Source: a virus
Direction: 5' to 3' (one strand)
Length of the DNA stretch: 62,985 nucleotides
Virus record (IMG/VR): IMGVR_UViG_3300034137_000009
Coordinates: 1-62,985 of that record
Shown in pieces: positions 6,138 through 53,000 of this stretch. The position numbers and the translations under genes were made by a program. Within the stretch, counting starts at the first letter, position 1. Every line of letters begins with the position of its first letter. The notes below the pieces were generated by a model. That model made no database searches. It was given only the letters and a program-made list of their open reading frames with translations, and was not told where the DNA came from.

Positions 6138-6150
6138 CACCTCCAGGCCT

Positions 6151-6180
6151 CACCCCCGCAGCCAGCAGGCTGCGGGGGTG
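6151..6180 (+). terminator. 13-bp terminator hairpin
   Basis: CACCCCCGCAGCC (6151-6163) pairs perfectly with GGCTGCGGGGGTG (6168-6180) around the tetraloop AGCA, 14 nt after the preceding stop codon. Confidence 0.8.
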
Positions 6181-6299
6181 ACCCTGTCTCGGCACACACG
6201 CGGTTCGTTGGGTCGCCACAAGCGATGTCCACTGGCTCTAGCGTGTGTGCCGGGTCAAGGTCACCCCCGACCTACCCCTACTCTCCCCTAGGAGAAGGC

Positions 6300-6689
6300 A
6301 TGTCCATGCTCATGTCCACTCGCGGCATCGTCGAGGCCTGGGCCACGCGGTCCAACGTCAGCCTCGACAAGCTCAACATCGACAAGGTGCGCGAGGACGC
6401 CTCCCCCGGCGACAGCGACTTCTACCTCCCGAACACCGTCGAGATCGAGATCATCTACGACGGCTCGGTCGACGAGGAGTTCTGCATCGACGAGCTGTAC
6501 GCGGTCAACGTCGTAGACGACTGCCTCGTCCCCGACCTCATCGCCCACGCGGCGAAGTCCGACTCCCCCGAGTGGACCGTCTACGTCAGGCGCGTCTCCG
6601 GCGAGCACGGCGACTACGCCGAGGCCGAGCACCTGTTCGAGCGAACGGGTGACGGCAGCGGTGTCACCGAGGCACTGGGTGACCGGTAG
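6300..6689 (+). CDS. Hypothetical protein
   Basis: 129 residues. ATG at 6300 preceded by TAGGAGAAGG, chosen over an in-frame ATG at 6225. Acidic protein. SDFYLPNTVEIEIIYDG resembles CDFYLPISSVAF in the 785-1063 protein. No family recognised. Confidence 0.75.
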   Translation: MSMLMSTRGIVEAWATRSNVSLDKLNIDKVREDASPGDSDFYLPNTVEIEIIYDGSVDEEFCIDELYAVNVVDDCLVPDLIAHAAKSDSPEWTVYVRRVSGEHGDYAEAEHLFERTGDGSGVTEALGDR

Positions 6690-11657: not shown

Positions 11658-14540
11658 ATGACAACAACGTCAGCTGACATCTTCAGCACCAAGAACAACG
11701 TCACCCTGTCGGACACCGACGAGAAGGCAAGGCGGGCGGTCAAGGCCTTCCGATCCCTGCAGCCGACGCTCAGCGCCTACGCCCGCGTGCTCACCAAGAA
11801 CCCGCGCATCGTGGTCGAGATGTCGTCCTCGGACAACGGCTCAACCGACGGCCACAAGATCTACTATCGTCCCCCCATCAGCCTCGGCGAGGACGTTCAG
11901 CACGATCGTCGGCTGTGCGACAAGCGCGACGCCGACCTCACCCCCCTGTGCCGGGCGTGCGAGGTGCGCGAGGACACCCTCGTGACTATCTATCACGAGA
12001 TCGCCCACATCGCTTTCGACAGCTTCGCAGAGACGAAGGACGAGGAGCGTGCTGCGCTACTCGAACGTGCTATCAAGGAGCACGGCGGCCGGTACGCCGC
12101 GCTGCTCCGCCGCAAGATCGAGGTGGCCCCGTCCTACGTGAAGAACTCCTACATCGGTATGGCCGGGTTGATCTCCGACTTTCTCCCGTTGCTGGTCAAC
12201 TGCCTGGAGGACGCCCGCGTCAACCGCGAGATGTTCACTGCCCGCAAGGGCACCAAGGTCATGTTCGATGCCAACACCCACCGTATCTTCGAGGGTGGTG
12301 TCGAGCAGCGCGACCCGAAGACCGGCAAGATCATCACGGTGATGTGGAACGAGTACCCGCTCAACATGCAGGCGCTTGTCGGCGTCTTCTGCAAGGCATC
12401 GGACTACAAGTACGACACGTGGTTCGCCCCCCAGGTCGTTCGCGCCCTGGACGACGCCGAGCTGACCAACCTCGTCAACCGTATGCGGACCGTGCGATCC
12501 GCAGCCGGTGTGTACGAGCTGTCCTTCCCCGTGCTGGCGCGCCTGCGTGAGCTCGGGTTCTGCAAGCTTCCCGACGACCCCGAGCCCGAGCCCACCCCCG
12601 AGGAGAACGACGATGCCCCCCAAGAAGAGGACACCGATCAGCCCGACGAGGCTGACGACGACGGAGGGCGAGGAGGAGATGACAAGCCCGATGCCGACTC
12701 CGACGGACCTGCCTCCGACGGCGACGACGATCCCGAGGGAGACGCCCCCGAGTCTGAGTCCGAGGACGAGGCCACTACAGGGGAAGGCACCGATGCCTCC
12801 GATGGCGGTGAGCCCGACTCCAACGATGATGGAGATGCTGGAGGAACAGGCGCAGGCGAGGATTCAGGCGATGAAGAACGAGGCGAAGGTTCTGATGGCG
12901 ATGGAGCCGAGCCCGAGGAGGCTGGAGCCGACGAGCCCAGCGACGATGCCGGAGACGGCGCAGGAGCCGGTGACGACGGGGAGGCCGATGCCCCTTCGGA
13001 CACCGGAGATGGTGAGGCGGCAGAGGGAGCACCTGGCGAGGAAGGTGATAGCGAGCCCGGTGCGGGGTCTGCTGGAGACGGAGCACCAGTTTCACCCGCA
13101 GACGGATCTGGCGACGATGGTGACGCTGGCGACGGCGAGCCTTCCGATGCCCCCGGAGCCGAGTCTGAGGACGGTGCTGGCGACGGGGGTGATCGTGAAG
13201 CGGAAGGGGGTGAAGGTGACACTGATGCAGCAGCCGAGCCCGACGGGGAGGCCGGTTCTCCGACAGCAGCTGGACAGCCCAACGCTGGACACGCCGAGGG
13301 TGACGACCGGGACGGGCACCCCGAAGGTTCTGATGGAGCACGCGAGGACGACGCTGGAGCTGCTCCTGAGGGTGGAGCCGAAGCTGATCCCGCCGGGCCC
13401 TCGGTGGATGGGGATTCTACGGAGGCGGTAGACGACGAGGTGATCGACACCGGTGCTGACAACGGCACCGGTGGGATCAAGGTCAACGAGTCGGACGACC
13501 CCGATCTGCCGATGGGCACCCCCGACGAGGTGAAAGCCGGTCTGGTCAAGTTCGGCGACCACGAGGAGAAGCCCAAGTCGGTTGATCAGGTCCGCGACGA
13601 GATGGCTGTAGACAAGGCCATCGTGCAGGGCGCGTACTTCGAGACGCCGTCGTCTAGGATTCACGGCGTGCGTGAGCACCGGTACGGCAAGCCCGAGATC
13701 GATCGGCACGGCTTCGACTTCAGCCGTGCATGGAAGAACCTCGGTTCGTACTTCGGCTACTCGACAACCGCCCTCGGACAGGACGGGGAGTTTCTCCCCA
13801 CCGAGAGTGTCCTTGGTCCGGCCCTACTGAGGATGCGGGTCGCGTTCTCCGACAACCAGCGTGGCAACATGGCGCGGCACAAGCGTTCGGGCAGGATCAA
13901 CGGCGCTGTACTGGGTAAGCGTGCCCCCCTGGAGGATGGTCGTCTTTTTCAGAAGAAGACCATGCCTGGCAAGAAGGACTACTTCGTGCTCATCGGTATG
14001 GACGTATCTGGTAGCACCGTTGGCCAGAACATCGTGCTCGAGAAGCAGGCCGTCATGGCGCAGGCCGAGCTGTGCAGGCGCATGGGCATCCCCTTCGCCA
14101 TCTTCGCGCACAGTGGCAACCACCACGACAGCCAGAACGGGTCCGTTGGCATCGACCTTGACATCTACATCATCAAGGAGCCCGGTGAGGTGTGGGACGA
14201 CAAGGTCAAGGAGCGTCTGCTCAAGATCGGTCCCGATGCAGCCAACATCGACGGTCACACGATGGAATACTACCGCAAGGTGCTTGACGGTGTGGATGCG
14301 ACCGACAAGATCATCATGTACTACACCGACGGCAAGATGCCTGCGGAGAACTACGATGAGGAGTTGGAAATCCTCCAGCGCGAGCTCCGCATCTGCAAGC
14401 AGAAAGGCTACACCGTCATGGGTGTTGGCATCCGTACCGACTCCCCCGTCCGACACGGCCTCGATACCGTGCAGGTTGACGGTCCGGCCGATGTTGGCAG
14501 GGTCGTGCGTCACCTCGAGAAGAGGTTGACGGGTGCTTAG
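11658..14540 (+). CDS. CobT-like VWA-domain protein with long acidic linker
   Basis: 960 residues, ATG at 11658 with GGGAGG upstream. The N-terminal region has a zinc-protease-like HEIAH near residue 113. Residues ~308-594 are an Asp/Glu/Gly/Ser low-complexity linker. The C-terminal ~200 residues are a VWA domain with intact MIDAS: DVSGS near 781, a Thr in DGHT near 866 and YTDG near 890. This arrangement matches CobT/VWA proteins that work with MoxR-type AAA+ ATPases, here at 8811. It may mediate remodelling or metal insertion on a phage or host target. An overlapping 307-codon frame inside the linker is a compositional shadow. Confidence 0.88.
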   Translation: MTTTSADIFSTKNNVTLSDTDEKARRAVKAFRSLQPTLSAYARVLTKNPRIVVEMSSSDNGSTDGHKIYYRPPISLGEDVQHDRRLCDKRDADLTPLCRACEVREDTLVTIYHEIAHIAFDSFAETKDEERAALLERAIKEHGGRYAALLRRKIEVAPSYVKNSYIGMAGLISDFLPLLVNCLEDARVNREMFTARKGTKVMFDANTHRIFEGGVEQRDPKTGKIITVMWNEYPLNMQALVGVFCKASDYKYDTWFAPQVVRALDDAELTNLVNRMRTVRSAAGVYELSFPVLARLRELGFCKLPDDPEPEPTPEENDDAPQEEDTDQPDEADDDGGRGGDDKPDADSDGPASDGDDDPEGDAPESESEDEATTGEGTDASDGGEPDSNDDGDAGGTGAGEDSGDEERGEGSDGDGAEPEEAGADEPSDDAGDGAGAGDDGEADAPSDTGDGEAAEGAPGEEGDSEPGAGSAGDGAPVSPADGSGDDGDAGDGEPSDAPGAESEDGAGDGGDREAEGGEGDTDAAAEPDGEAGSPTAAGQPNAGHAEGDDRDGHPEGSDGAREDDAGAAPEGGAEADPAGPSVDGDSTEAVDDEVIDTGADNGTGGIKVNESDDPDLPMGTPDEVKAGLVKFGDHEEKPKSVDQVRDEMAVDKAIVQGAYFETPSSRIHGVREHRYGKPEIDRHGFDFSRAWKNLGSYFGYSTTALGQDGEFLPTESVLGPALLRMRVAFSDNQRGNMARHKRSGRINGAVLGKRAPLEDGRLFQKKTMPGKKDYFVLIGMDVSGSTVGQNIVLEKQAVMAQAELCRRMGIPFAIFAHSGNHHDSQNGSVGIDLDIYIIKEPGEVWDDKVKERLLKIGPDAANIDGHTMEYYRKVLDGVDATDKIIMYYTDGKMPAENYDEELEILQRELRICKQKGYTVMGVGIRTDSPVRHGLDTVQVDGPADVGRVVRHLEKRLTGA

Positions 14541-14946: not shown

Positions 14947-15396
14947 GTGACCGTCACCGCCGAGGACATCGTCCAGTTCGCCGAGAAGAAGGTCGTCCTG
15001 ACCTACGTCAACGCGGAGGGCGTCGAGACCTCTACCGAGGGGAAGGCCGAGGCCGCGAACGCGCTTGGCATCCTGCTCAAGCCGAAGGGCAAGACCAACC
15101 TCGAGCTCGTGGAGCTGGCGTCCATCGTCGGCGTCGAGCACGCCCCCGAGCCCACCAAGGAGCTCAAGGCCAAGACCCTCAAGGTCGTGGACCACGGGGC
15201 CGCGAAGACCCACCTGCTCGAGCGCCACGGCTACACCCTGTCCGAGGTCAACGGCCTCGACGAGGCAACCGCGCTCGAAGTCCACACCCAGATCGACCAC
15301 CCGGCCGAGGACCTCGGTCACGTCCACGGGCCGAAGGCCTCCGCCGAGAAGGCCGAGGCCATCGAGGCGCAGGCCGCCGAGGCCGACGCGGAGTAG
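14947..15396 (+). CDS. Hypothetical protein upstream of the structured RNA
   Basis: 149 residues, GTG at 14947 preceded by GAGGAG. Composition: charged, Ala/Glu/Lys-rich with a helical acidic tail (KASAEKAEAIEAQAAEADAE). The N-terminal 60 residues look like a compact alpha/beta domain. No family recognised. The stop lies 2 nt before the first helix of the ncRNA candidate, so it is either its upstream cistron or a partner of it. Confidence 0.75.
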   Translation: MTVTAEDIVQFAEKKVVLTYVNAEGVETSTEGKAEAANALGILLKPKGKTNLELVELASIVGVEHAPEPTKELKAKTLKVVDHGAAKTHLLERHGYTLSEVNGLDEATALEVHTQIDHPAEDLGHVHGPKASAEKAEAIEAQAAEADAE

Positions 15397-15893
15397 ACTC
15401 CTATGCCACCACCTCCGACCCCAGGGGAACCCTGAAGGGCCAGAGGGGAACGCCACAGTGGTCGGTGGCCTGGTGGTGGCGTAGGGCATAACAGAACGGA
15501 GTGGTGACGTAGAAGGGTGGCACCACCGCGCTGACTAGGTGGGACGAGGTCAGCACAGGGGCTCATGGGATGAACAGGCAACGGCGTGAAACCCCAGGCA
15601 TGGGGGTCTGTTCATAAACTCGGGGACATCGCCGCCTCGAGTACGCTGGTTCGACTCCAGCGGGGTCCACATCACGCTGGGCTAGCCCGTTGGGCTGTGA
15701 GGACCCCAAGGTCTATCAGTACACGGCGGGTGACGGGAGGGGATGCCCGCCCAGCGTGACCAAACTGCCTGGTTCCTCTGTCGAGGTCTGGCCGGGTAGA
15801 TGCCGTACCAAGCTGCGGCAGCCGGTCTCAAGGTACCGGTCAACGGAAAACTGAGGCGCGTACACCCCCCACAGTCTAACTGTGGGGGGTGTT
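15397..15893 (+). ncRNA. Candidate large structured non-coding RNA (~500 nt)
   Basis: There is no plausible ORF over ~550 nt, but many strong helices in nested or sequential order: 15401-15413/15472-15484 (13 bp, one G-T) enclosing 15415-15420/15460-15465; 15530-15535/15549-15554; 15570-15577/15608-15615 (8 bp, ATGAACAG with CTGTTCAT) enclosing a C4/G4 stem; 15618-15625/15635-15642 (8 bp); 15644-15649/15657-15662 with a T-loop-like TTCGACT; 15662-15668/15701-15707 plus 15672-15675/15697-15700 and 15684-15688/15692-15696; 15725-15730/15746-15751; 15775-15778/15783-15786; 15801-15805/15816-15820; 15822-15826/15835-15839. It ends in a 13-bp terminator. I cannot match it to tRNA, tmRNA, RNase P or a group I intron. 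Large phage RNAs such as GOLLD or ROOL are a comparison to test, not an assignment. Confidence 0.72.
15862..15893 (+). terminator. Terminator at the 3' end of the RNA locus
   Basis: ACACCCCCCACAG (15862-15874) is perfectly paired with CTGTGGGGGGTGT (15880-15892), loop TCTAA, followed by TTGTG. It defines the likely 3' end of the structured RNA. Confidence 0.82.
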
Positions 15894-15952: not shown

Positions 15953-16567
15953 ATGCCAGTCTATAACCGGCTTGGATCGTCACGAGACATCGCCAAGCAC
16001 CCGTTCATCGTGATCTGTACCGAGTCCCACTGCACCCTCCACATGTCCGCCCCTTCGTATGAGGAAGGCGTGCGCGTGTACGGTGCCCACCACTGCCCCC
16101 ACCTGGGAGGCCCTACCAAGATCGGATACAGCGTGACACTCACCATCGTAGAGACAGCGTGGCAGAAGCTGGATGCCGTGATGGATCTCATCATGGACCC
16201 CGCCGCATCGACTCTGCCGGAGCAGACCATGCGTGCCAAGTACGAGGCTCGTGGCATGGCCGAGATCATCGCCCTGTTCATGGGTCCGTTCTTCACCACC
16301 CCCGACGACGTGGCGAAGGAGGCGAAGAAGCGCTGGCAGGCCCGCCGTGACGGTGACACCGCATACGAGACGGTCGGCCTCGGTCACCTCAAGTACCAGG
16401 CGCCCCCCGGCGGTCCGCGTGACAAGACTGTCGAGCCCGCGCACAAGCTCACCGACAAGGAGATCGCAGGCATCAAGGCCGCGCTCGGCTCAGGCATGAT
16501 GAAGGACGTGGAGCTCGCCAAGATGTACGGCGTCAGTGTCGCCATCATCCGACAGGTGTCCGCTTGA
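15953..16567 (+). CDS. Hypothetical protein with C-terminal helix-turn-helix
   Basis: 204 residues; ATG at 15953 with CCGGAGG upstream. N-terminal ~60 residues contain CTESHC and HHCPH, a possible zinc site. The C-terminal ~45 residues (LTDKEIAGIKAALGSG, then VELAKMYGVSVAIIRQV) have the shape of a HTH used by sigma-like or resolvase-type DNA binders. Likely a phage DNA-binding regulator, but its target is unknown. A promoter overlaps its stop codon. Confidence 0.72.
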   Translation: MPVYNRLGSSRDIAKHPFIVICTESHCTLHMSAPSYEEGVRVYGAHHCPHLGGPTKIGYSVTLTIVETAWQKLDAVMDLIMDPAASTLPEQTMRAKYEARGMAEIIALFMGPFFTTPDDVAKEAKKRWQARRDGDTAYETVGLGHLKYQAPPGGPRDKTVEPAHKLTDKEIAGIKAALGSGMMKDVELAKMYGVSVAIIRQVSA

Positions 16568-19106: not shown

Positions 19107-19659
19107 AGGTGGCGCGTACAAGCCCGGCACCCGTGAGAAGTACACCGACTCGGGAAAGATGTCGGAGAACCGCTACGCCTGGGTTCGCACGATCCTAGGA
19201 CAGATGGTGCTCTACCGTCACGTTGAGGAGCCGCTCGCCAACGAGCCGACAGTTGGCGACACACTCCAGCTCATGATGCCCCGCCCCGGTGGCCGGGCTA
19301 TCAGCATGAACTTTTCCGCACTAACCCTGGCGGAGCTGGAAGCAATACGCGAGTTCTTCAACCTCCTATTCGATCTGGCTACCCCGGTAGTCAAGGCTAG
19401 AGACAAGGTGGCACAGGATGCGTTTGACGCAGGGGATGACTCTTACGCCCGAATCTATCGACAGGTTCCGCAGCTCATTATCCGCAAGGGGCCGGTCGGA
19501 CAACACCGTCAGGGCGTACACGACGGACCTGAGGATGCTGCTGCGGGAGACGAACATGACGGAGATCTCGATGGAGGACTTCGAGGACGTAGCGCTGGAG
19601 TGGCTCCAGTCGAAGAGGAAGACCCTGGCACCGAAGTCGACGGGTCGGAGGCTGACTAG
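19099..19659 (+). CDS. Hypothetical protein overlapping the recombinase gene
   Basis: 186 residues; GTG at 19099. Residues 1-130 have normal protein character (IREFFNLLFDLATPVVKARDK). Residues ~130-186 are encoded within the start of the tyrosine recombinase gene and read as low-complexity Gly/Asp/Glu, like a shadow frame. The two frames overlap by ~240 nt. No earlier stop exists, so either the tail is tolerated or an ancestral end was replaced. Function unknown. Confidence 0.65.
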   Translation: MARGGAYKPGTREKYTDSGKMSENRYAWVRTILGQMVLYRHVEEPLANEPTVGDTLQLMMPRPGGRAISMNFSALTLAELEAIREFFNLLFDLATPVVKARDKVAQDAFDAGDDSYARIYRQVPQLIIRKGPVGQHRQGVHDGPEDAAAGDEHDGDLDGGLRGRSAGVAPVEEEDPGTEVDGSEAD

Positions 19660-20251
19660 CCTTAAGGCCTTCGTCAAGTGGGCCAAGTGGCCTAGCGACA
19701 TGCTCGATGAGTACTCCGCGCCCACCCCAGCCAAGGGCATCCCGCACCCCCTGCCCGAGGGCTTCGACGGAGTCACCCGCATGGTGAACGCGGCCAACAA
19801 CGAGCGGCAGCAGGCGCTCATCACCCTCTGCGGTATGCTCGGGTGTCGCGTCGCCGAGGCGCTCGCTGTTAAGGCTAGCGACTTCGACCTCAACAACATG
19901 ACACTGTCGATCCGCGGCAAGGGCGACAAGACGCGCATCGTACCTATCTCCCCCCGTGCATGGGAGATCCTCTCCCTGCCTGTCACCCGTGCCTATGTGG
20001 CCGGGGACGGAGAGGTCGTCGGACTGCGCGACCGCTTCGCCCGGCGCGTGATCACCGATCTCGGTATCCGCGCTGGACTGCAGCGTCGTGTGTCGAGTCA
20101 TGACCTGCGTGCCACGTTCGGCAGCGCGGTCTACAACAAGACACTCGACCTCCGTGTCACGCAGGAGTTGCTCGGTCACGCGTCGTCTGCTACGACCGAG
20201 CTCTACACCGGCATCAGCATGGACAAAATGCGAGGGGCGGTGGAGCTGTGA
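19418..20251 (+). CDS. Tyrosine recombinase / integrase
   Basis: 277 residues (ATG 19418; ATG 19436 is an alternative). A SAM-like N-terminal core-binding domain (RGRSDNTVRAYTTDL) precedes a catalytic domain with the full set: R in GCRVAEAL near 144, K in the beta-hairpin (IRGKGDKTRI), HDLR near 228-231, H in LGHASS near 253 and Tyr in ELYTG near 262. The length fits XerC/D-like enzymes more than large phage integrases. It may integrate the genome or resolve multimers. No attachment site or repressor gene is recognised nearby. Confidence 0.88.
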   Translation: MRLTQGMTLTPESIDRFRSSLSARGRSDNTVRAYTTDLRMLLRETNMTEISMEDFEDVALEWLQSKRKTLAPKSTGRRLTSLKAFVKWAKWPSDMLDEYSAPTPAKGIPHPLPEGFDGVTRMVNAANNERQQALITLCGMLGCRVAEALAVKASDFDLNNMTLSIRGKGDKTRIVPISPRAWEILSLPVTRAYVAGDGEVVGLRDRFARRVITDLGIRAGLQRRVSSHDLRATFGSAVYNKTLDLRVTQELLGHASSATTELYTGISMDKMRGAVEL

Positions 20252-50041: not shown

Positions 50042-53000
50042 CTAACCCGCCAGGTTCTCGAGGTTGCGGAGGAACGCCTCGGCATCGTCACCGGACTTGA
50101 TGTTCGGCAGAACCAGATCGCCGTTGATGTTGATGGTACGCGCTCCGTTGCTCTGGTTGGCCGGGACGGGTGCCTGCTGGGTCACCGACGCTACACGACC
50201 GGCCGCCGATGCGACGAGCCCCGTGGCGGCCCCTCCACCGCCCGTGGGGAGGTTCTCGATGCGGTTGACGGTGATGCCACGGTCGAGGGATTCCTTTACC
50301 CCGGCGGTGACGGTAGCGATAGCACGGAAGCCGTCGTCGAGACGCCCGAAGAACTGCGTAAGCGGGACGACGGCCTCGGGACCACGCTCACCGATGATGG
50401 CGTTGGTGGCGTTGTTCACGATGCCACCCTTCGCCATCTTCAGCGTAAGGCCGTACATGTCGGCGTACGCGAGCTGGCGCGGCGTCAGCTGCGAGCTCGA
50501 CATGTGCTGGATGAGCCAGTCATTCTCCGGCGTCTGCTTCGGCAGCGGGTGCGCAGCGATAGACTTCTCGAGCGCAATTGCAGCCGGGTTAACGAAGGCC
50601 GCCAGCGCGTCGGCACCGGGCGCCTTGCCGTTACCGAACGCGGTAGAGCCCGTAGCGGACTCGGTGGCGGGAACGTCCGGCGCACTGGTAGCGGCGGCCT
50701 GCGCCTGGGCGATAGCATCCGCATTAGCCTGGGCAGCAGCCGCAGCTGCACCGGCAGCGGCCGCAGCGTTGTTTGCAGCCTCAAGTGCCTGGTTCGCCGT
50801 CTCCTGTGCGCTAGCGACCTGGGTACGCAGCTCATCGAGGACACCACCGATAGACTCGGCAAGGGACGCGATAGCCTCGACCAGGGTCTGCGTGTCCTCA
50901 CGACGGTTCACGTCGTGGTCGGTCAGTAGATCGGTGAGGGAAGTCTGCGCCTCGACGAGGGCGCTAGCCTCCGTAGCCCAGTTCTCGACAACGGCCGCGT
51001 GGTTGGCGGTCAGCAGCTCGATGAGCGCGGTGTTAGCGTCCGTGTCGAATATAAGCCGTGCATCGTAGAGCTCCTGTGCCTTCGCGAGGCCCTCGGTGTG
51101 GAGCGTAGTAAGCTGCTCACCCAGGGTCGCCGTCTGTGCCGTGATGGCGTCGACGATACCGCTGTTACCGAGCGTGATGCCCCCGATGATCTGTCCGGCC
51201 GTGGTGCGCTCACCCTCGAGCCACATCGTCTCCCAGCGGGCCGCACGGAGCGCGCTGTCGAGGTTGAGCTGGTTGACCGCCGAGGCGGTAGACGTAAGCG
51301 CGTCCATGAGGGGGCCGAGGGGCATAACCGCCTCGGGACCGGCCTCACCGATCACCGCAGTCGTTGCACGACGGACGATACCACCCTCGGCGAGCATCGG
51401 CATCCTGGTCGGGACAACACCACCCTCGGCAAGGGCCGCGTGAACGTGGTTCCAGTGGTTGCCGGGCTCACCGGGACGACCCCAGGCGTAGCCGGGAACC
51501 TGGCGACCGTTCTTGATGTTGAAGGGGGCACCCGCGAGGATAACCTCCTTCAGACTACCGGCAATCGGCATGAGGGCGTTGAAGATGGCACGCAGGCCAG
51601 AGTTGCCGAATCCCTGGTTCTTGTGAACGGCGGGACCACCGTGGGGCTGGTAGTCAACAGCGCGACCGGTCTGGTGGTAGGAGCCACCGTCACCGGGACG
51701 CACGGTAGAGGTAATGACCTTGTCGAGGCCGGGGGCGTTCGCGTTGAGCCAGTTGTCGATACCCCTCCACCCGGAACCGGCCGGAGCGCCGTTACCAGGG
51801 GAGAGAGCGGGACCGGAAGAACCAGCGGCGGCAGCTGCCGCACGAGCCTCGGCCTCAGCCTTCTTGTCGTACTTGTCGGACTCGCCCTTGGCCCAGTTGT
51901 AGAAGGCGTTCTTGCGGTTGTTAGCGATCTCACGAACCGGACCGCGAAGATCGGTCGCGTCCATCGCCAGGTCGTAACCCTTGAGGAACGGCGCCAGCGC
52001 GGCCATGACCGCACCCTTCTGAATCGCGCTACCGACCGCCGCGACACCAGATGCAACCGCCCCGGCGGCGTCCTTAACGGCCCCCCCGACGCTACCGGCA
52101 GCGTCCCTGGCCTTGTCGAGGATGCCACCGTTCTCGTACTGCGGGACGTTGAGTCCGAGGTCCTTAGTCAGCTGGGCGTGCAGCTGGGTAGCCCGACCCC
52201 GGAAGCGCGGGTCGGTCGGCACAACGTACTCTGGGTGGCTAGAGCTTCCCTCACCGACGATGGCACGAGCGCCCTTGGTCTTGAAGCCAGCACCAACCGT
52301 GGTCTGCGGAACGTAACCACCGACGGCCAGCTGCGGAATCTGCGGGATGAGGTCGATCTTGAGGCCGATGCCGAGCTTGGACCCGACCGCGTTAAGGCCC
52401 TTGAACAGCGTGTTGATCGCGCTGGTGACCGCGTTAATACCACCGATGATCTTGTTAATACCGCCCTTGCCGTACTGATCCCACAGGGAACCAAGGCCGC
52501 TCATGAAGGCCTTCCAGGCGGGCTGAACAACCTTGTCCCAGAGGAACGTGAACGAGTTGCCAAGAATAGTAAGTGCGGTACCGATTCCGTCGAGAACCGG
52601 CTTACCGAGGGACCTCCACGCCGTGCCGAGGTAGCCCGTGAACCTGTCCCACAACGGCTTGATAACGAGAGCGTAAACATCCTCGAATGCCTGACCGAGA
52701 ACCTTGAGGGCAACACCGATACCGTCGAGGACCTCCTTGCCAAACTTCCATCCGGCCTTGAGTCCACCGGTGAAGGCGTTCCATGCCGGGCTGATCACCT
52801 TCGTCCAGATGAGCTCGAAACCCTCACCCATGATCTTGAGGGCACCCACGATGGCGATGAGCAAGACCAGGCCCACCGTCTCCCATACCCGCTTGACGGT
52901 GCCCCACCACAGGTTCCAGACCGGCTCGACAACCTTCTCCCAGACCCACTTGACGGCGGTGCCGAGGGCCTCGAACAGGGTGCCGATGGCGGAGAACAGC

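What the first reader, a model, noticed from the sequence alone, without database searches (positions are those of the whole stretch)
15397..15893. Large structured RNA locus in an otherwise gene-packed phage arm
This is the only non-coding stretch above 300 nt in the window. It holds at least ten independent helices, several of 8-13 bp (for example 15401-15413/15472-15484 and 15570-15577/15608-15615), a T-loop-like hairpin (TTCGACT) and a clean terminator at the 3' end. It does not fit tRNA, tmRNA, RNase P or a group I intron. A promoter for the next gene starts right after the terminator, so the RNA is a separate unit. It could be a new member of the large phage RNA class (as with GOLLD/ROOL) or something else.
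Basis: partly seen in the sequence, partly recalled or inferred. Interest (0 to 1): 0.9.

Follow-up and report, generated by a model that had tools for sequence, protein, structure and literature searches.

The report
Phage RNA with tRNA-like processing domain
A roughly 500-base non-coding RNA in an uncultured actinobacterial phage carries a tRNA look-alike that lacks an anticodon arm; similar look-alikes turn up unannotated in many related and some well-studied phages (including the abundant mystery RNA of mycobacteriophage D29), where they probably mark the spot at which the host's tRNA-maturing enzymes cut phage transcripts.

Summary
In detail: 15397-15893 is non-coding and strongly structured (z = -4.4). 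The 'T-loop-like hairpin' is one arm of a complete tRNA-like structure (TLS, 15559-15669): a 6-bp acceptor stacked on a 6-bp T-arm (12 bp, as in tRNA), two further arms, no anticodon arm. None of 10,000 shuffles of the region contains such a core. It is not a GOLLD, ROOL, tRNA or tmRNA by Rfam or ARAGORN. There is no sequence homologue, but the same kind of TLS occurs, unannotated, in Gordonia, Rhodococcus, Microbacterium and cluster A Mycobacterium phages. There compensatory changes support it, and G1-C72, purine-73 and C74 are invariant in the 12 scan hits. In cluster A phages it lies in the abundant right-end non-coding RNA of D29/L5, whose function is unknown. In the phages related to this window, the place behind one conserved gene (phrog_6708) holds a TLS, a tRNA, or a self-cleaving pistol ribozyme 6-14 nt after the stop codon. 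Best explanation: the TLS is a transcript-processing signal cut by host RNase P (and RNase Z), giving a defined hairpin-capped 3' end. The TLS is well supported; RNase P cleavage is inferred. The claimed 'clean terminator' and 'promoter' are only partly supported.

The parts
14947..15396 (+). upstream gene (phrog_6646, unknown function); stop codon 3 nt before the first RNA helix
15399..15486 (+). 5' domain: 15-bp helix 15399-15413/15472-15486 enclosing two small hairpins
   Evidence: z -2.7
15501..15526 (+). hairpin, 6 bp 15501-15506/15521-15526
   Evidence: p 0.82
15530..15554 (+). hairpin, 7 bp 15530-15536/15548-15554, ending 4 nt before the tRNA-like structure; would cap the upstream RNA if the TLS is cut at its 5' end
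   Evidence: p 0.99; compare hairpins directly before the TLS in Kvothe, Minos, Woes, Perlina, Casend, G001
15559..15669 (+). tRNA-like structure (TLS), 111 nt: acceptor 15559-15564/15663-15668 (G1-C72, G3.U70); first arm 15570-15579/15606-15615; second (variable-like) arm 15618-15625/15635-15642; T-arm 15644-15649/15657-15662 with loop TTCGACT; discriminator A 15669
   Evidence: z -3.0; 0/10000 shuffles
15558..15559 (+). predicted RNase P cleavage site (between these bases)
   Evidence: inference from RNase P rules in PMC11143913
15669..15671 (+). A73-C74-A75; purine-73 and C74 are invariant in the TLS set
15672..15759 (+). 3' domain: 11-bp helix TCACGCTGGGC/GCCCAGCGTGA starting 2 nt after the TLS 3' end, with an inner hairpin; DocB7 and Perlina have a comparable closed helix just after their TLS
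   Evidence: z -3.4
15765..15799 (+). hairpin, 10 + 4 bp
   Evidence: p 0.98
15801..15820 (+). hairpin, 7 bp
   Evidence: p 0.94
15825..15857 (+). hairpin, 6 + 3 bp
   Evidence: p 0.89
15862..15892 (+). 14-bp G+C-rich hairpin at the 3' end; probable terminator or 3' cap, but no U-run
   Evidence: z -6.4
15953..16567 (+). downstream gene (phrog_5406, unknown function)

Best explanation
15397-15893 is a structured non-coding RNA, either its own transcript or the 3' UTR of the gene before it, built around an anticodon-less tRNA mimic (15559-15669). Most likely the mimic is a processing signal. Host RNase P recognises the acceptor/T-arm stack, G1-C72 and A73-C74, and cuts between 15558 and 15559; RNase Z or exonucleases trim the other side after A73. 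This leaves an upstream RNA whose 3' end is a stable hairpin, a released tRNA-like RNA, and a downstream hairpin-rich RNA ending in the 15862-15892 hairpin. Shown by computation: non-coding, structured, tRNA-like core, the same kind of core in other actinophages with compensatory changes, same genomic niche in relatives as tRNAs and pistol ribozymes. Inferred: transcription, cleavage by RNase P/Z, stabilisation of the products.
For: (1) TLS core found in 0 of 10,000 shuffles of the region and 0.2 times per shuffled whole window. (2) The same descriptor finds 20 hits in 28 related phages plus the window against 2.6 per shuffle; setting aside 6 known tRNAs and 2 that I judge chance matches leaves 12 TLS in 11 genomes, and all 12 have G1-C72, purine-73 and C74, which the descriptor did not ask for (C at 74 in 15% of shuffled hits). 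(3) Compensatory changes in Gordonia TLS: 144/144 cells paired, 10 of 24 pairs changed on both sides, covariation 0.51 against 0.18 shuffled; in cluster A mycobacteriophages 63/63 cells paired, 6 of 16 pairs changed on both sides. (4) The invariant features are those RNase P reads: T-arm, 12-bp stack as ruler, G+1/C+72, R73C74 pairing; hairpins of acceptor stem + T-stem + T-loop are sufficient substrates (PMC11143913). In Katyusha and Demosthenes the TLS consists of only the acceptor/T-arm minihelix. (5) Acceptor identity otherwise drifts freely, against a conserved aminoacylation identity. (6) Directly behind the phrog_6708 gene relatives carry a pistol self-cleaving ribozyme 6-14 nt after the stop (TIN2, TIN4, GTE7, GMA7; also Gibbles and G005), a TLS (Minos, ASerpRocky, Demosthenes, DocB7) or a tRNA (Perlina): different devices that all cut RNA at that place. 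(7) Cluster A phage TLS lies in the right-end ncRNA for which Northern blots show a ~500-nt RNA and 100-400-nt pieces (PMC5712189).
Against: No transcript, cleavage or RNase P assay exists for any of these TLS. The window RNA is known from one genome and has no sequence homologue, so its own helices cannot be tested by covariation. N-1 is G here, not U. CCA is not encoded (ACA). In the window the TLS follows phrog_6646, not phrog_6708. GTE7 and GMA7 have both a pistol ribozyme and a TLS, so the two are not simply alternatives. The stack is 11 rather than 12 bp in the Gordonia class A and cluster A TLS. The 8-row minihelix alignment was chosen by pairing, so only its unselected features count. 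The other ~380 nt of the RNA are unexplained by this mechanism.
Confidence: 0.5

Rival explanations
1. The tRNA-like RNA is itself the effector: matured, possibly CCA-tailed, it accumulates and acts as a decoy or inhibitor of a host tRNA-binding factor (for example a tRNA-targeting defence enzyme).
For: Stable, highly abundant and growth-inhibitory ncRNA is reported for the cluster A phages that carry a TLS (PMC5712189); the TLS arms are compact and conserved within phage groups.
Against: The body arms vary between phages and are absent in Katyusha and Demosthenes; acceptor sequences are not conserved across phages; no protein partner known.
Confidence: 0.25
2. A relic: a decayed phage tRNA or tmRNA gene, or a captured host tRNA 3' end used as attP core by the integrase gene at 19418-20251.
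For: TLS share a niche with real tRNAs (Perlina) and a real tmRNA (G005, Gibbles); an integrase gene lies 3.5 kb downstream; the window acceptor has G3.U70 as in tRNA-Ala and tmRNA.
Against: The 25-nt T-arm/acceptor sequence has no exact match in one genome each of 84,980 bacterial and archaeal species, so no exact attB was found; compensatory changes show continuing selection on the anticodon-less form in other phages.
Confidence: 0.1
3. A new large ornate RNA (GOLLD/ROOL-like scaffold or cage) in which the tRNA-like fold is only one structural module.
For: About 500 nt, many helices, phage genome; comparable long structured loci in G003, G007 and DocB7.
Against: No Rfam GOLLD/ROOL similarity at E <= 10; relatives keep the TLS while the flanking domains differ.
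Confidence: 0.08
4. A (possibly permuted) tmRNA: GGGGTCC 15662-15668 could pair with GGACCCC 15702-15708 as in permuted tmRNA genes.
For: Exact 7-bp complement; permissive Rfam match to beta_tmRNA, 12.7 bits, E 0.18.
Against: Far below the gathering score of 84; ARAGORN finds no tmRNA; GGACC pairs locally with GGTCT (p 0.91).
Confidence: 0.03

Closest known systems
Right-end ncRNA of cluster A mycobacteriophages L5/D29/StarStuff (PMC5712189)
   Same: Phage ncRNA of about 500 nt of unknown function; D29 carries the same kind of anticodon-less TLS (GGGTAG/CTACCC acceptor, TTCGATT T-loop, A73 C74), matched in 137 phage records
   Different: No sequence similarity to the window RNA; stands at the genome end behind its own promoter; TLS stack 11 bp
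Phage RNAs cut by RNase P: C4 antisense RNA of P1/P7, phage M3 RNA, T4 tRNA precursors (PMC11143913)
   Same: Phage transcripts that use tRNA-like form as an RNase P site
   Different: Compared through the literature only; here the TLS keeps a canonical T-loop and R73C74 but no anticodon arm, and cleavage is not demonstrated
MALAT1/NEAT1 with tRNA-like 3' element (PMC12941219 abstract; details from memory)
   Same: Works like: stable 3' structure followed by a tRNA-like element that makes the tRNA-processing machinery form the 3' end
   Different: Eukaryotic, unrelated; triple helix instead of hairpin
tRNA-associated theta ribozymes of gut phages (PMC10879173) and pistol ribozyme (RF02679)
   Same: Phages using RNA cleavage elements at tRNA-type loci; pistol ribozymes occupy the TLS place behind phrog_6708 in relatives
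   Different: Self-cleaving ribozymes; the window RNA shows no ribozyme match
tmRNA (RF00023, RF01850)
   Same: tRNA-like acceptor/T-arm with G3.U70
   Different: No tag reading frame called, no tmRNA match; G3.U70 not kept in other TLS
GOLLD and ROOL
   Same: Large structured phage RNA
   Different: No match to either family; tRNA-like core instead

Membership tests
tRNA (RF00005) | Match to tRNA model / ARAGORN call | tested here: not met
tRNA (RF00005) | 12-bp acceptor/T-arm stack with 7-nt T-loop | tested here: met
tRNA (RF00005) | Anticodon arm (5-bp stem, 7-nt loop) | tested here: not met
   first arm is 10 bp with a large internal loop
tmRNA (RF00023/RF01850) | Covariance-model match and tag reading frame | tested here: not met
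   (12.7 bits vs 84)
GOLLD / ROOL | Covariance-model match | tested here: not met
Pistol and other Rfam self-cleaving ribozymes | Covariance-model match | tested here: not met
   for the window RNA (met in relatives)
Actinophage anticodon-less TLS (group described here) | 11-12 bp acceptor/T stack, T-loop T[TG]CRANY, G1-C72, R73, C74, no anticodon arm, no tRNA model match | tested here: met
Actinophage anticodon-less TLS (group described here) | Compensatory changes in the window RNA's own close relatives | not testable with these tools
   no homologue of the window RNA found
RNase P substrate | Cleavage 5' of G1 by RNase P | not testable with these tools
   needs biochemistry

The most novel reading that the evidence does not exclude
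Actinobacteriophages share a general way of making RNA 3' ends and stable ncRNAs in which anticodon-less tRNA mimics (cut by host RNase P), true tRNAs and self-cleaving pistol ribozymes serve as interchangeable cutters behind phage genes, and the abundant D29/L5 ncRNA is one product of it.
Probability: 0.35. Interest if true: 0.85.

Novelty: new variant of a known kind. Interest (0 to 1): 0.7.

Why it matters
Standard tRNA finders and Rfam miss these elements, and in nearly all records I looked at they are not annotated, although over 130 mycobacteriophage and about 50 Gordonia phage records match them. They give a concrete, testable handle on the unexplained abundant ncRNA of L5/D29, and suggest that phages use tRNA mimics and ribozymes as interchangeable RNA-cutting sites.

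Tried and rejected
Sequence homologues of the RNA: none in INPHARED phages, plasmids or the related records searched; DocB7 and Perlina RNAs likewise found only themselves. Flanking-protein relatives in IMG/VR: none for the downstream gene, one weak for the upstream gene. Pattern scans of IMG/VR with the T-arm plus 3' flank: none; with GTAGCTGG...GGTTCGANTCC: after a filter for acceptor and T-arm pairing only DocB7 itself was convincing. Permuted tmRNA: rejected. Host tRNA / attP core: no exact 25-mer in species genomes. Alanine identity as a general role: G3.U70 is not kept in other TLS. Coding sequence: rejected. Pistol or other ribozyme in the window, at the RNA or behind its own phrog_6708 gene: none. 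The first descriptors were looser and gave coding-region chance hits; a stricter one replaced them. Papers: no earlier description of such phage TLS found, but only open-licence papers are held.

Full report
What was claimed and what is there. The stretch begins right after the TAG of the ORF 14947-15396 (phrog_6646) and ends 59 nt before the ORF 15953-16567 (phrog_5406). It is not coding: no frame on either strand has a positive codon score and its short ORFs match no PHROG. It folds better than all 100 shuffles, z -4.4, and the individual domains have z-scores of -1.6 to -6.4. The 3' hairpin is strong (14 bp) but is followed by TGTTGTGCTGTG, so it is not a textbook intrinsic terminator, and no sigma-70-like promoter was found around it.

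The central domain. The hairpin with TTCGACT is the T-arm of a complete tRNA-like structure, 15559-15669. GGGCTC (15559-15564) pairs with GGGTCC (15663-15668) and stacks on the 6-bp T-arm, giving the 12 bp of tRNA (6+6 instead of 7+5). Between them lie a 10-bp arm (15570-15615) and an 8-bp variable-like arm (15618-15642). There is no anticodon arm. The discriminator is A, followed by CA. Mean pair probabilities are 0.98 or more for acceptor, T-arm and both arms. A descriptor for such a core was met in 0 of 10,000 dinucleotide shuffles of the region and 0.2 times per shuffle of the whole window. ARAGORN and Rfam call neither tRNA nor tmRNA.

Related phages. The window is an IMG/VR virus record whose AAA-ATPase and CobT-like proteins belong with Gordonia, Tsukamurella and Rhodococcus phages of roughly 72-83 kb. 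No homologue of the RNA itself was found by sequence. At the same place in its closest relative G001 (L011) only about 85 nt with a hairpin separate the two genes. Searching 28 related phages (mostly one or two 20-kb stretches each) and the window for the core gave 20 hits against 2.6 in shuffled sequence. Six are known tRNAs and two I judge chance matches. The other 12 (11 genomes, some close sisters) all have G1-C72, purine 73 and C74, although the descriptor asked for none of these. ARAGORN calls the G001 element a tRNA-Gln, but it has one long arm and no D-arm in the predicted fold, and Rfam does not call it. Perlina has one more with an acceptor mismatch. Folded alone, most give the same shape: acceptor, one or two arms, T-arm.

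Compensatory changes. In the Demosthenesvirus, Woesvirus and Getseptimavirus group (ASerpRocky, Kvothe, Minos, GMA7, GTE7, Amore2) every cell of 24 pairs is paired and ten pairs change on both sides, spread over acceptor, first arm, second arm and T-arm; shuffles and slid partners do far worse. BLAST finds this element in about 50 Gordonia phage records, nearly all without annotation there. In Katyusha and Demosthenes the middle is missing and only the acceptor/T-arm minihelix remains, with T-loop TGCGAGT. A Microbacterium phage (Casend) has a one-arm version. The cross-phage 12-bp minihelix alignment was selected by pairing and is only illustrative.

Link to D29/L5. Because WC1 and cluster A phages are reported to make abundant ncRNAs of unknown function (PMC10986025; PMC5712189), I looked at D29. 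On the minus strand at 48084-47980, in the right-end non-coding region, lies the same kind of TLS. 137 phage records carry a match. Among D29, SWU1, Centaur and BiancaTri92 the T-stem and the first arm show compensatory changes, with all cells paired; the acceptor does not vary in these four. Neither ARAGORN nor Rfam recognises it. For D29 alone an alternative fold without the T-arm is 1.1 kcal/mol better than the tRNA-like one. In L5 the RNA starts at 51,672 and mostly ends at 51,140-51,190, and is cut into 100-400-nt pieces. Counted from the right genome end, the SWU1 TLS (1069-1173 nt) overlaps that L5 zone (1107-1157 nt, taking the L5 length of 52,297 from memory). I could not read L5 itself, so this positional match is approximate.

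The locus in relatives. Behind the phrog_6708 gene, Rfam finds pistol self-cleaving ribozymes in TIN2 (35.8 bits), TIN4 (61.5), GTE7 (48.1), GMA7 (44.1), Gibbles and G005 (36.9 each); in the first four they begin 6-14 nt after the stop codon. In Demosthenes, ASerpRocky, Minos and DocB7 a TLS begins 16-141 nt after it, and in Perlina a tRNA 69 nt after it. G005 and Gibbles also carry a TLS, a tRNA-Leu and a tmRNA. Different devices for cutting RNA thus occupy one niche, although some phages (GTE7, GMA7) carry more than one. In the window the RNA follows a different gene.

How it most likely works. RNase P measures the 12-bp acceptor/T stack, binds the T-arm, stacks on G1-C72 and pairs with R73-C74; [quoted passage not shown] These are the features that stay constant here while other acceptor positions drift. 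I infer that host RNase P cuts before 15559 and RNase Z or exonucleases trim after 15669. In many of these phages (Kvothe, Minos, Woes, Perlina, Casend, G001, and the window at 15530-15554) a stable hairpin stands directly before the TLS, so the cut would leave a hairpin-capped 3' end, much as in MALAT1. This step, and transcription of the window RNA, are not shown.

Limits. One genome, no own homologues, no expression data; the tRNA-like core explains about 110 of 497 nt. The descriptor was written after seeing the first examples; the unselected features and the alignments are the firmer evidence.

Noticed in passing
L065:8387-8317 (TIN4), L057:8796-8716 (TIN2), L064:9625-9557 (GTE7), L063:9731-9663 (GMA7), L069:9650-9577 (Gibbles), L015:4169-4242 (G005): Pistol ribozymes above Rfam's gathering score in the non-coding stretch behind the phrog_6708 gene, 6-14 nt after its stop codon in TIN2, TIN4, GTE7 and GMA7.
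   Followed up: partly
L205 minus strand, D29 48084-47980; SWU1 51405-51301: tRNA-like structure inside the abundant right-end ncRNA region of cluster A mycobacteriophages; loop GGAATG of the first arm is invariant in the four aligned.
   Followed up: partly
L015:4794-5210 and L069:9027-8612: Full tmRNA (tag ADDNVDADYVAAGIADVEAFLADSVLAKA) next to tRNA-Leu and a TLS with TGCAAAT T-loop in Gibbles and G005.
   Followed up: no
window 6138-6300: Second structured non-coding stretch behind the window's own phrog_6708 gene: a G+C-rich hairpin and a long helix CGGCACACACGC/GCGTGTGTGCCG; G002 has a similar GTCTCGGCACAC...GTGTGCCGAGTCA element.
   Followed up: partly
L053:12770-13440 (G007) and L045:3345-4830 (G003): Long non-coding, apparently structured stretches (about 0.6 and 1.5 kb) behind the same gene, holding TLS-like cores and, in G007, a tRNA-Asn.
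   Followed up: no
L060:19091-19223 (Minos): Tandem hairpin repeats GGGTAGTTGAGAGTTGCAACTACCC near one end of the fetched stretch.
   Followed up: no
window 12400-13600: Very long Asp/Glu/Gly/Ala-rich low-complexity stretch inside the CobT/VWA-like gene 11658-14540.
   Followed up: no
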